Shown here one piece after another: positions 1 to 6,337 of a stretch of DNA of 6,337 bases. The position numbers were made by a program, and so were the translations under genes. The stretch is from Phycisphaerae bacterium (GTDB lineage: Bacteria > Planctomycetota > Phycisphaerae > Sedimentisphaerales > SG8-4): contig JAUVYQ010000140.1 of NCBI GenBank assembly GCA_030603035.1, positions 1-6,337 of the forward strand, written 5' to 3'. The stretch's first letter is position 1. The number at the start of each line of letters is the position of its first letter. The notes beneath the pieces were generated by a model. It saw only the letters and a program-made list of their open reading frames with translations. It ran no database searches and was not told where the DNA came from.

Positions 1-141
1 CGCGTTCCTGTGTACGCCAGATGTGAAACGAGACTTTTTCGATAGCTTTTTGGATTCGCTTTGTTAGCGGTATCAGACGTTCCCCTCTTTTCTCGGCGAT
101 TTCTTTGCCTACAAAAAGCGAGTGGACTGGGTGTGCCTCGA
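1..141. repeat. Terminal direct repeat, left copy (circular overlap)
   Basis: This segment is identical to 6197-6337. The integrase reading frame continues correctly from position 1 into 6196, so the repeat is the overlap of a circular molecule of 6,196 bp and not a biological duplication. An overlap of exactly 141 bases fits the largest k-mer of common short-read assemblers. Confidence 0.93.
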
Positions 142-1642: not shown

Positions 1643-1803
1643 CCGACCGAAGGTCGGCTTAAAATCCCATGATGGGGTCCTCTTGGCGAAGGGAGGGAAC
1701 GGGAGGAGCTGGGGGAAAAGAGAGAGCGGCAGCGAACGCCCCCAGCGGGGGTCAACAAGAGGAAAAAAAAGGGGAGAAAAAATGGTGCGAATATGATGAT
1801 GAC
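1643..1803. repeat. 161-bp direct repeat, copy 1
   Basis: Matches 1896-2056 at a constant offset of 253 bp without gaps. The unit begins with the hairpin CCGACC-GAA-GGTCGG, followed by a 13-base poorly conserved stretch. Then comes a 133-bp block that differs from copy 2 at only 8 positions, 81 consecutive bases of which (1704-1784) are identical. Inside are CCCCC-AGC-GGGGG (1739-1751), an outer pairing TCCTCTTG/CAAGAGGA (1678-1685 with 1756-1763), a purine-rich strand and A-runs. Four G runs at 1691-1715 fit a quadruplex motif in this copy only. Confidence 0.88.
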
Positions 1804-2248: not shown

Positions 2249-2785
2249 TTAGAGCTTTGGGATTTGGTAGTCTGGCGGTGGCGGAGTCAGGGATAGGGAT
2301 ACTGCAACCATGCCGGTGGACTCTCCGAAAGGGTAGTAATCGCCAGCAATTTTGGGCAGGGGCCTTATCCAGGCAATCGGCACACCCACACCAAGGCCTG
2401 GGCTGATTATCCATTTGTCGGTGCCGTTTGACCAGATGAAATAAAGACCGTCAGTCCGCCGATAGTAATCGTATTGGTTGTGCTTTCCGGTAAGCTCGTA
2501 AGTTCCTCTGCAATCAGGGGCGGGGTCACCAGTTACAATCGCATCGAAAATAAATGGCAGGTTGTTCAGTGCCCGGTAGATGTAGTAGCTTACCCATCGA
2601 GGGTCCTTTGTGTAGGTCTGTGCCTTGCTAAAGGCGTTACGCTGAGCGTTCTGTGCGGCGGAGCGTTGCTGAACTCTTCGCGGCTTAGCTGCTTGGTGCA
2701 AGCCGGATTTGTCCCTTGTGAAGTACACTCCACTGAAGCCGCCACGGATATCAGTTATGCCGCCACCGGGTTTTACGAGTGTCAT
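2249..2785 (-). CDS. GGGIT-type phage-like protein with C-terminal Y/W-rich domain, 178 aa
   Basis: Last gene of the long block, starting 5 bases after the HNH stop; AGG within the HNH stop region is the only Shine-Dalgarno, suggesting coupling. Residues 1-25 (LVKPGGGITDIRGGFSG..F.R) match the start of the 233-aa protein encoded at 4262, so the two share an N-terminal module. Residues 40-75 are Gln/Ala-rich and helical. Residues 88-163 (APDCRGTY ... YDYYRRTDGLYFIW ... KWIIS ... AGDYYPFG.STG) look like a small beta domain I associate with uncharacterised phage and environmental proteins. The tail is proline-rich. No enzyme motif. Probably a structural or surface protein, unproven. Confidence 0.82.
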   Translation of the reverse strand: MTLVKPGGGITDIRGGFSGVYFTRDKSGLHQAAKPRRVQQRSAAQNAQRNAFSKAQTYTKDPRWVSYYIYRALNNLPFIFDAIVTGDPAPDCRGTYELTGKHNQYDYYRRTDGLYFIWSNGTDKWIISPGLGVGVPIAWIRPLPKIAGDYYPFGESTGMVAVSLSLTPPPPDYQIPKL

Positions 2786-4261: not shown

Positions 4262-4963
4262 TTAGGCGGTTACTGTGCAGACCGCAGTAAACGGCTCACT
4301 GATTCGGGCGTCCATTCTTTCGATACGTGCTTTAACCCAAACTTTTTGACCTTCAAACGACGGCGTCCAGTGGTCTGTTGAGTGTGGCGTCGTTGGCGGG
4401 GCAACTGCATCACCACTGATTCGCAGTATTCTGCGGTAAGGCCCGGCGAAAAAGTTGCGGGTGCCGTTTTGTGGCGTTCCAGCAAGAAGCCACATAGAGC
4501 CTCCGGTTTCGTCACACCAGTCGCGGGTATCATCGTAGGTACAGACGATGAGGTTTGGCGGAGCGGCCGAAATAGCGATGGAAAAAGCCGGATCGTGTTC
4601 GGGGAGAGTCAAGACAGTAGGGCCGGCAAGGATAGGAGCAAATCCCCACCTTGCTCGATTAGCGTTGCTTCTGATGAAGTGGTTAAAGCCGGACAGCTTG
4701 ATGCTCTCGCCTAACGCGTTTTTCATTGTAATAGCATCGGCGTAGGCCTTCCACGCCGCCCGCTGAGCAGCGCTACACGTTTCGTTCCAAACTTCCGTCA
4801 AGAGGGCAATAGCCGACCTTACAGCGACCTGGTCTGCGGTGTTTGGATTGATTGGCTTTGTTCTTGCTCTTACGTAGTTTCCGTAGCGGTTTCTCGCGAA
4901 TGTGTTGCCAGCGATTGAGCCGGACATCTTGGTAATACCACCACCAAATTGTACTAGTGCCAT
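4262..4963 (-). CDS. GGGIT-type phage-like protein, 233 aa (largest gene)
   Basis: ATG 4961-4963 follows a very strong Shine-Dalgarno (AAAGGAGGTGA, 5 bases away); a TTG start 8 codons earlier would include that site and is rejected. Residues 1-50 (ALVQFGGGITKMSGSIAGNTFARNRYGNYVRARTKPINPNT) form the module shared with the 178-aa protein. Residues 53-76 (LLTEVWNETCSAAQRAAWKAYADA) are amphipathic helices, followed by SGFNHFIRSN (91-100). The rest is beta-rich (SIAISAAPPNLIVCTY; VWVKARIERMDARISEP). The strong translation signal implies high expression, as for a structural protein, but no capsid fold is identifiable. It sits directly behind a structured leader and terminator. Confidence 0.85.
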   Translation of the reverse strand: MALVQFGGGITKMSGSIAGNTFARNRYGNYVRARTKPINPNTADQVAVRSAIALLTEVWNETCSAAQRAAWKAYADAITMKNALGESIKLSGFNHFIRSNANRARWGFAPILAGPTVLTLPEHDPAFSIAISAAPPNLIVCTYDDTRDWCDETGGSMWLLAGTPQNGTRNFFAGPYRRILRISGDAVAPPTTPHSTDHWTPSFEGQKVWVKARIERMDARISEPFTAVCTVTA

Positions 4964-4985
4964 GTATGTCACCTCCTTTTGAGGC

Positions 4986-5020
4986 AAAAAAAGCCCCGAC
5001 CATCCGTCAACGGCCGGGGC
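4986..5020 (-). terminator. Intrinsic terminator/attenuator before the 233-aa gene
   Basis: In minus-strand RNA, GCCCCGGCC (5020-5012) pairs with GGUCGGGGC (5001-4993) around a 10-base loop; all nine pairs form, one being G-U. Seven U follow (4992-4986). It is a textbook terminator, yet it ends only 15 bases before the strong Shine-Dalgarno of the 233-aa gene. It therefore either separates the cysteine-rich gene from the rest or acts as a regulated attenuator in the leader. Confidence 0.82.
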
Positions 5021-5103
5021 GTTACTAAAGCGTTTAGCAGGTTTTCGGCCACACTACCTGAAAACCCGCGTAACGTCCAGAAAAAAGTTTGTGAGGTTGG
5101 ACG
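5020..5103 (-). promoter_or_regulatory. Structured leader RNA with three-way junction (possible regulator)
   Basis: On the minus strand CGTTAC (5075-5070) closes on GTAACG (5025-5020). Inside, with no unpaired linker base, lie GCGGGTTTTC/GAAAACCTGC (5069-5060 with 5046-5037, 13-base loop) and TAAA-CGC-TTTA (5036-5026). Upstream, CGTCCA/TGGACG (5103-5098 with 5079-5074) gives a hairpin that overlaps the closing stem by two bases. The closing stem shares base 5020 with the terminator stem. The one imperfect pair is U-G in minus-strand RNA but A-C on the other strand, favouring function in this transcript. A possible -10 TATAAA lies at 5134-5139. I cannot match it to a known riboswitch class. 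Confidence 0.6.
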
Positions 5104-5152
5104 CTGCTGCGATAAGTCGAGGCGGTTGGTAGTTTTATACCGTACTTTTTTT

Positions 5153-5350
5153 TTACGGTGGCTTTAATTCGGTGGTGTCGTATTGAACGTGGACCTTGAC
5201 GATGTTGGATGTGTTTGCAAAAAAGTGTGAGCCGATTCCGTTTGTCGGGACCGTCGCTTCGTACTTCAACGGCTCAAACGGAACGAGGTTATAGTCGTGG
5301 CATAAGAGCCACGCCCTGTAATCAGATATCCAGTCTCCGTTCACGGCCAT
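5153..5350 (-). CDS. C-terminal part of the cysteine-rich protein in the -1 frame, or separate 65-aa gene
   Basis: Open from 5431 in the frame one base behind the 121-aa gene. The region after 5350 (VNGDWISDYRAWLLCHDYNLVPFEPLKYEATVPTNG ... NIVKVHVQYDTTE) looks like genuine protein ending in a beta strand, whereas its upstream part is a shadow of the other frame. An ATG at 5348-5350 overlaps the TGA of the 121-aa gene by a few bases, but no Shine-Dalgarno at proper spacing is visible, so it would depend on coupling. Alternatives are a -1 frameshift product of about 185 aa or an assembly or natural indel. It lies before the structured leader; a short ACCGTA/TACGGT hairpin overlaps its stop. Confidence 0.55.
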   Translation of the reverse strand: MAVNGDWISDYRAWLLCHDYNLVPFEPLKYEATVPTNGIGSHFFANTSNIVKVHVQYDTTELKPP

Positions 5351-5706
5351 ACCTCGAAACGACAACCTTGGGTGCAGATACCATCTATCCACGGGCGGCA
5401 ATGGTTGTCGGCGATTATAAGGAGTGCACACCAGAAACCGTCAACGCGGTCGACGAAAATATGCGTATCGTTACTACCACCCCAACAAAAAATCAGATAG
5501 ACATCGCCTTGGCGACCATTGCCATCTGTGACTAAACCTTGGAATTCGCAGGGTGTGCCAGGGGCTTGGTCGAGGTCGCCGGTCAATGGGCTTAATGTAG
5601 GGACGGTTAATCTACAGTGTAGTATCTCTGGTAGATTAGCACAGCAATCTGAGCAGGTTCCTAAATCAGGCTCATCCGGTGGTACTGTATGTCCCATAGC
5701 GTACAT
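5341..5706 (-). CDS. Cysteine-rich protein, 121 aa (possibly truncated by frameshift)
   Basis: First gene after the integrase terminator. Ten cysteines (18, 21, 22, 31, 53, 74, 93, 103, 111, 115), several in pairs such as CSDCC, alternate with short beta-like segments (DVYLIFCW, FWCALLIIADNHC, CRFEVW), suggesting a metal- or disulphide-stabilised beta protein, perhaps virion-associated. No signal peptide. It ends abruptly after CRFEVWP with TGA at 5341-5343, and the adjoining frame continues with similar-looking sequence, so the natural protein may be longer. Start ATG 5704-5706 lacks a Shine-Dalgarno; the next ATG is at codon 4. Possible -10 TATAAT at 5728-5733 would give a leader of about 15 bases. 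Confidence 0.7.
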   Translation of the reverse strand: MYAMGHTVPPDEPDLGTCSDCCANLPEILHCRLTVPTLSPLTGDLDQAPGTPCEFQGLVTDGNGRQGDVYLIFCWGGSNDTHIFVDRVDGFWCALLIIADNHCRPWIDGICTQGCRFEVWP

Positions 5707-5891: not shown

Positions 5892-6337
5892 TTAAGTTTT
5901 CTGTGAGGTTTCGCCTGTTTCTTCACTGTCAAGCGAGTCGATGGCGTCTTTTAGGTGTTGGCTGTTAGGATGTGTGTAAATCTGTGTGCTACTTAGCTGC
6001 TTGTGGCCCAAAAGTACTTGGACGACTCGCATGCTGGTTGTTAGCATCAGCTTTGAGGCGAACGTGTGGCGTAAGACGTGGGGGTGGACAGGCCGATGGA
6101 TGGCGTTAAGAGCAGCGTATTTGATGATACGCTCAACCTGTCGGGTGGATAGTGGCTGCCAGTGGTTGACCTCGTAGAAGGCAAATTGGCCCGGTTCGCG
6201 TTCCTGTGTACGCCAGATGTGAAACGAGACTTTTTCGATAGCTTTTTGGATTCGCTTTGTTAGCGGTATCAGACGTTCCCCTCTTTTCTCGGCGATTTCT
6301 TTGCCTACAAAAAGCGAGTGGACTGGGTGTGCCTCGA
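5892..6337 (-). CDS. int: Tyrosine recombinase/integrase, C-terminal part (joins 328..1)
   Basis: Carries the rest of the catalytic domain (codons 110-210 below 6196; the part above 6196 duplicates the left end). Visible motifs are HPHVLRHTFASKL, with His149, Arg152 and the following His, then LLGHKQLSSTQIYTH, with His174 and the nucleophile Tyr183. With Arg49 and Lys80 from the other part, the full R-K-H-R-H-Y catalytic set is present, so the enzyme should be active. The gene ends with TAA at 5892-5894. A terminator lies about 30 bases further on in its direction of transcription (5825-5861). It is the last gene of its operon. Confidence 0.95.
   Translation of the reverse strand, partial: EAHPVHSLFVGKEIAEKRGERLIPLTKRIQKAIEKVSFHIWRTQEREPGQFAFYEVNHWQPLSTRQVERIIKYAALNAIHRPVHPHVLRHTFASKLMLTTSMRVVQVLLGHKQLSSTQIYTHPNSQHLKDAIDSLDSEETGETSQKT
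6197..6337. repeat. Terminal direct repeat, right copy (circular overlap)
   Basis: Second copy of bases 1-141, base for base. It lies inside the integrase gene. Removing it and joining 6196 to 1 restores one 633-nt open reading frame. Confidence 0.93.

What the first reader, a model, noticed from the sequence alone, without database searches (positions are those of the whole stretch)
4986..5103. Linker-free three-way junction followed by a terminator in front of the largest gene
Bases 5020-5075 fold completely into a 6-bp closing stem, a 10-bp hairpin and a 4-bp hairpin with no junction nucleotides. The closing stem shares a base with an intrinsic terminator, which ends 15 bases before a very strong Shine-Dalgarno, and a competing upstream hairpin overlaps the closing stem. 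Both imperfect pairs (one in the junction, one in the terminator) are G-U in minus-strand RNA but A-C on the other strand, which argues for an RNA role. This is the layout of a riboswitch or attenuator, matching no class I recognise.
Basis: partly seen in the sequence, partly recalled or inferred. Interest (0 to 1): 0.75.

Follow-up and report, generated by a model that had tools for sequence, protein, structure and literature searches.

The report
Terminator trapped between promoter and gene
The predicted folded RNA is probably not a riboswitch but overlaps a promoter, while the stop signal between that promoter and the main gene recurs in related small phage-like DNA circles, which suggests the gene is switched on by letting RNA polymerase run through the stop.

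Summary
The bases are as described: minus-strand 5075-5020 can form a linker-free three-way junction, followed by a strong intrinsic terminator, a Shine-Dalgarno and a 233-aa gene. The junction is not supported as a functional RNA: its 4-bp arm is open in the minimum-energy fold, its closing stem is lost when flanks are included, and none of 15 relatives compared shows a comparable inverted repeat spanning the promoter. By position it overlaps a sigma70-type promoter (-35 5079-5074, -10 5056-5051; a weak match, inferred by homology), so RNA from that promoter would lack the 5' arms.

What recurs is the layout. In 19 of 28 copies (window included) a hairpin of -18 kcal/mol or better plus T tract precedes the same gene, against 4 of 78 other ORFs. 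Thirteen alignable hairpins from eight elements show compensatory changes. Six of 16 elements have two terminators in tandem after the promoter. Sixteen contigs carry a 62-nt block ending about 0 or 20 nt before the -35.

Best reading: a promoter-proximal attenuator relieved by antitermination, perhaps by a factor loaded at the block, lambda-Q-like. Antitermination is inferred, not shown.

The parts
5080..5141 (-). 62-nt conserved block: GGTnnnnnnnnACC dyad (5141-5128) followed at fixed distance by GCAGCG.CC.ACCTCACAAACTTTTTTC (28-nt motif, 5107-5080)
   Evidence: PWM scan: one strong copy in each of 16 contigs, on the gene's strand and upstream of it; 8 of the 16 were used to build the PWM, the other 8 scored 24.7-40.7 against at most 13.4 for any other site in the scanned contigs; ungapped alignment
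5074..5079 (-). inferred -35 hexamer TGGACG, directly after the block
   Evidence: best promoter-like pair next to the block in the window, 7 of 12 consensus positions, spacer 17; not reported by the generic scan that needs 9 of 12
5051..5056 (-). inferred -10 hexamer TAGTGT; transcription start expected near 5044
   Evidence: start site is inference (7 nt after -10)
5037..5069 (-).
   Evidence: longest such repeat not shared by the other block elements at this place
4986..5020 (-). intrinsic terminator: 12-pair GC-rich hairpin (5020-4993) and T7 (4992-4986)
   Evidence: (-22.6 kcal/mol); kept as a feature in relatives
4971..4977 (-). Shine-Dalgarno AGGAGGT
   Evidence: sequence
4262..4963 (-). 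233-aa signature gene; C-terminal fibronectin type III-like domain, N-terminal part unassigned

Best explanation
The region is the control region of the element's main structural-type gene, not a riboswitch. Order on the minus strand: conserved 62-nt DNA block, sigma70-type promoter, short leader (about 20-35 nt), intrinsic terminator, Shine-Dalgarno, gene. RNA polymerase starting at the promoter normally stops at the terminator after about 60-70 nt; the gene is expressed when polymerase reads through. The block sits 0 or about 20 nt (two DNA turns) from the -35, so it most likely binds a protein that acts on the polymerase at the promoter, either as an activator or as an antiterminator loaded there, as lambda Q is. 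Shown by sequence: terminator, its covariation in relatives, block, spacing, order. Inferred: promoter activity, start site, termination in vivo, the protein, and antitermination.
For: Hairpin of -18 kcal/mol or better plus T tract before this gene in 19 of 28 copies (21 of 28 at -8 or better), against 4 of 78 (8 of 78) other clustered ORFs in the same contigs; 76 of these 78 do not overlap the signature gene, and the 4 are three Rep_1 genes and one small membrane-protein gene. Covariation: 13 alignable 32-nt hairpins from 8 elements, 94.2% of cells paired, 6 of 12 pairs with changes on both sides, 0 of 500 shuffles as high; slid controls 20-44% paired. Promoter-like site with at least 9 of 12 matches within 200 nt upstream of the hairpin in 14 of 20 copies, 3.6 expected from shuffles. 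Block in 16 contigs; automated best -35 at a gap of -1 to 1 in 4, 19 in 2 and exactly 20 in 10 of 16, although the 20-nt spacers are only 49% alike on average. Two terminators in tandem between promoter and gene in 6, one in 6 and none found by the scanner in 4 of 16. Distance from T tract to start codon is 18-35 nt in most, too short for a further promoter.
Against: The window's own promoter match is weak (7 of 12) and rests on its position next to the block. Four of 16 block elements lack a hairpin-plus-T-tract that the scanner accepts: L066 and L071 have hardly any hairpin, L009 and L069 have a hairpin set apart from a T8-T9 tract. Among the 28, L005, L013, L071 and L072 also lack one. The covarying set is a selection of alignable hairpins, with T1/T2 pairs from the same element, and the structure came from the same sequences. 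No known antiterminator protein was found: no Q-family Pfam hit in the 12 window ORFs scanned. Most copies come from one metagenome bin (G002). No expression data.
Confidence: 0.5

Rival explanations
1. Constitutive terminator: it only stops read-through from upstream genes and sets a low, fixed leak into the gene; nothing regulates it.
For: Strong single hairpin and U tract in the window; Tn916 carries a terminator that insulates its genes (PMC11658703, abstract).
Against: In 14 of 20 copies a good promoter-like site lies upstream of, not downstream of, the terminator, and 6 of 16 elements place two terminators after it; an insulator would sit before the promoter.
Confidence: 0.22
2. The promoter and terminator make a short (about 60-70 nt) RNA that is itself the product, for example a copy-number or silencing RNA; gene expression is a by-product of read-through.
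For: First terminator starts 18-51 nt after the inferred start in many copies.
Against: The leader before the terminator is not structured beyond chance in the window and no conserved leader sequence between distant relatives was seen by eye; tandem T1-T2 in 6 elements is not needed for one short RNA.
Confidence: 0.13
3. Riboswitch or RNA attenuator using the three-way junction, on transcripts that come from further upstream.
For: The 56 nt fold better than shuffles (z -3.0); the junction is geometrically perfect.
Against: Not the predicted fold in context; not seen in relatives; no Rfam match; arms overlap the inferred promoter. Closest relatives (about 86% identical protein, P0002 and P0003) could not be read as DNA.
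Confidence: 0.07
4. The conserved block and hairpins are a DNA-level site: the attachment site of the tyrosine recombinase, or a replication origin.
For: The block is single-copy and occurs in 13 of 15 recombinase-bearing contigs with enough upstream DNA, and in 0 of 7 contigs with Rep_1 only.
Against: Two recombinase contigs (L001, L061) lack it; its phasing to the promoter in all 16 points to transcription; terminators also occur in Rep_1 elements without the block.
Confidence: 0.08

Closest known systems
Lambda-type late control: Q binding element, late promoter pR', terminator tR', late genes (Q21, lambda Q, Q82 families)
   Same: DNA site at a promoter, terminator soon after it, structural-type gene beyond; expression would need read-through. 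Lambda Q needs a DNA binding element and a promoter-proximal pause (PMC7171158, passages).
   Different: No Q homologue found here (families PF06530, PF03589, PF06323 named in PMC7171158; none hit); block lies upstream of the -35, not shown to bind anything; no pause shown; element is about 6 kb.
Processive antitermination RNAs (Tn916 canT; HK022 put recalled from memory)
   Same: Mobile element with terminators ahead of its genes and an element-borne means of read-through (PMC11658703, abstract).
   Different: Leader between inferred start and first terminator is usually only 20-35 nt; no conserved RNA structure other than the terminators was found.
Classical 5'-UTR attenuators and riboswitches
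   Same: Terminator ahead of SD and gene.
   Different: No conserved aptamer or antiterminator pairing, no leader peptide sought or seen, no Rfam match.

Membership tests
Intrinsic terminator | GC-rich hairpin followed at once by a T tract | tested here: met
Intrinsic terminator | stem kept by compensatory change in relatives | tested here: met
   on 13 alignable hairpins of relatives; the window's own hairpin is not alignable with them
Intrinsic terminator | RNA 3' ends at the T tract | not testable with these tools
   no RNA data
Lambda-Q-type late antitermination | promoter followed by terminator ahead of structural genes | tested here: inconclusive
   layout met in relatives; promoter activity and structural role of the protein are inferred
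Lambda-Q-type late antitermination | Q-family protein | tested here: not met
   no Q-family hit among 12 window ORFs (integrase as two pieces) or 17 ORFs of relatives
Lambda-Q-type late antitermination | binding element and sigma-dependent pause | not testable with these tools
   a phased conserved block exists but binding and pausing need experiments
Riboswitch | match to a known class | tested here: not met
Riboswitch | conserved aptamer structure in the leader | tested here: not met
   limited to relatives with up to about 60% protein identity
Riboswitch | aptamer lies in the transcript | tested here: inconclusive
   5' arms lie upstream of the inferred start; a read-through transcript from upstream is not excluded

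The most novel reading that the evidence does not exclude
A previously undescribed family of 5-10 kb phage-like circles controls its main structural-type gene by a new DNA-loaded antitermination system: an element-borne protein binds the 62-nt block next to the promoter and converts RNA polymerase so that it passes one or two promoter-proximal terminators.
Probability: 0.25. Interest if true: 0.75.

Novelty: new variant of a known kind. Interest (0 to 1): 0.45.

Why it matters
If the reading holds, very small mobile elements, which encode few recognisable regulators, use a late-gene switch of the kind known from large lambdoid phages. The block, the terminators and the shared genes give a direct way to find the factor, and the gene family (1231 homologues) has no Pfam or PHROG name. 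For the finding itself it matters that a striking secondary structure turned out to overlap a promoter.

Tried and rejected
Rfam in the window at a permissive threshold: four weak hits, none near its gathering score, among them Spot_42 over 4985-5084 (19.1 bits, E 3.9), taken as chance. Window DNA against phages and plasmids: no match; homologue P0120 by tblastn against both: no match. Signature protein and its alignment in viral contigs: no relative. An exact 30-nt piece of the junction in viral contigs: none. Core of the block in viral contigs: 12 stretches, none with the rest of the block and none with the signature protein; one ORF of L082 resembles an ORF of L059 (E 1.2e-20) and was not followed up. 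More genomes: matches in 6 of 397, 7 of 397 (largely the same set), 2 of 389 and 1 of 227. The idea that the inverted repeat is a repeated operator: no second copy beyond chance in the window. Block as recombinase site: kept as a rival. Two overlapping ORFs upstream (5341-5706, 5153-5431) as parts of one gene of cluster 4: not supported by BLAST; the second weakly resembles short ORFs just upstream of the gene in L069 (E 0.002) and L001 (E 0.026). Structure search: only the C-terminal part is covered, by fibronectin type III domains; Foldseek itself had no match at E <= 0.001. Paper searches gave no description of this family or layout in their listings; this is not a full literature search.

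Choices that affect the counts. The 28 copies are profile hits scoring at least 95 with at least 55 nt upstream; lower-scoring hits (N-terminal paralogues) and truncated copies were dropped. The 78 control ORFs are mechanically called (at least 80 aa, SD-like start) and 2 of them overlap the signature gene. In one search the script gave L009 a gap of 19; I read 0 there (TTGACA directly after the block, with a -10 that the filter refuses), and L068 is ambiguous between 19, 20 and 21; the tree used 0 and 20 for them. L057 was labelled as without block in that tree although its upstream DNA is cut off. In that tree the label gap-20 needs 4 changes and gap-0 4 changes, so spacing classes are not one clade each, but most gap-20 rows do fall in one clade.

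Full report
What was checked. Alone, the 56 nt fold at -21.1 kcal/mol against a shuffled mean of -12.98 (z -3.0, 8 of 1000 as low), but the 4-bp arm is open in that fold; with flanks the closing stem gives way to the upstream hairpin. The terminator is strong: 12 pairs, then T7 (-22.6 kcal/mol). Rfam gives nothing at gathering score in the window or in nine related contigs.

What the window is. Its first and last 141 bases are identical, so it is a 6196-bp circle. It carries a tyrosine recombinase read across the join (Phage_integrase, E 3.6e-19 and 3.7e-5 for the two pieces), an HNH protein (E 2.7e-6), a possible zinc-ribbon protein (below cut-off) and small unassigned ORFs. The 233-aa product of the gene in question has 1231 homologues at E <= 0.01 (best 120 listed, longest contig among those 10,060 bases), no Pfam or PHROG match, and no match in the phage, plasmid or viral-contig collections as searched. 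Thirteen loci were found in genome bins, and one bin, G002, holds 30 matching stretches; small contigs are easily mis-binned, so the host is not known. Nine contigs including the window end in identical terminal repeats. Relatives carry either a short tyrosine recombinase or a Rep_1 replication protein, L060 both, and some carry tail-collar-like (PHROG tail protein E 1.7e-13; Pfam Collar only E 0.0075) or laminin-G-like proteins (E 1.6e-19). They look like small phage-like circles; no capsid or packaging gene was identified.

The conserved layout. In 28 copies of the gene with at least 55 nt upstream, 19 have a hairpin of -18 kcal/mol or better with a T tract in the last 110 nt before the start codon, and 21 one of -8 or better; among 78 other clustered ORFs the numbers are 4 and 8, three of the four being Rep_1 genes. 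Promoter-like sites of at least 9 of 12 lie upstream of the hairpin in 14 of 20 copies tested (3.6 expected); the window's own scores 7 of 12. Thirteen alignable hairpins from eight elements keep their pairing by changes on both sides at 6 of 12 pairs, with no shuffle in 500 as high. Six of 16 block-bearing elements have two terminators after the promoter, six have one, and four have none that the scanner accepts.

The block. Just upstream of the promoter, 16 contigs carry one copy of a 62-nt block, a GGTnC...ACC dyad at fixed distance from CATCCTCGCAAACTTTTTT. The automated gap from block to best -35 is -1 to 1 in 4, exactly 20 in 10 and 19 in 2 contigs; I read one of the two 19s (L009) as 0. 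The 20-nt spacers average 49% identity. On a tree of the proteins the spacing classes do not form single clades, though most gap-20 rows group together. The block occurs in 13 of 15 recombinase-bearing contigs with enough upstream DNA and in 0 of 7 contigs with Rep_1 only. A winged-helix-like ORF family is found in 12 of the 16 and in none of the 11 others in that tally, but not in the window; its matches are weak (HTH_DeoR E 4.7e-4, below cut-off; a PHROG replication-initiation family E 1.2e-5).

Reading. In the window the block ends at 5080 and the inferred -35 and -10 are at 5079-5074 and 5056-5051. The 5' arms of the junction are therefore promoter DNA, and a transcript from near 5044 could form only the 4-bp arm and the terminator. 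The 10-bp inverted repeat may be chance, or an operator; it is not shared by the other 15 block elements. The terminator then stands between promoter and gene, with no room for another promoter, so expression needs read-through. A DNA site at the promoter plus an early terminator is how lambda Q systems are laid out (PMC7171158, passages seen), and mobile elements are known to combine terminators with antitermination (PMC11658703, abstract and section list seen). I propose the same kind of control here. The factor is unknown; no Q-family protein was found.

Limits. There are no RNA data. Most relatives come from one bin and are at most about 60% identical to the window's protein, so a junction specific to close relatives would be missed. 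The promoter of the window is weak. The covariation set excludes the window's own hairpin, which does not align.

Noticed in passing
window 1-141 and 6197-6337: Identical 141-nt ends: the window is a 6196-bp circle, and the recombinase gene runs across the join.
   Followed up: yes
window 4262-4963 and homologues: Signature protein family with 1231 homologues, mostly on short contigs, without Pfam or PHROG name; C-terminal fibronectin type III-like fold.
   Followed up: partly
window 1644-1803 and 1897-2056: Two 160-nt copies, 90% alike, of a G+C-rich stretch with purine runs in a region without a clear gene; possibly an origin.
   Followed up: no
window 2249-2785: 178-aa ORF shares the N-terminal motif of the signature protein; similar N-terminal paralogues occur in relatives.
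   Followed up: no
L003, L011, L058, L067 versus L059, L065, L071, window; L060: Elements with the same signature gene carry Rep_1 or a short tyrosine recombinase, L060 both: exchange of replication or integration modules.
   Followed up: partly
terminators of L051, L052, L053, L059, L060, L063, L064, L065: The hairpins contain a perfect or near-perfect palindrome (such as ACCTGGCCAGGT, CACGAGCTCGTG) next to the loop, differing between elements; reason unknown.
   Followed up: no
L058, L060, L079 upstream of Rep_1: Strong hairpins with nearby T-rich stretches also precede some Rep_1 genes.
   Followed up: no
terminator loops of window, L009, L069: Shared GGATGG on the 3' side of the hairpin in three gap-0 elements.
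   Followed up: no
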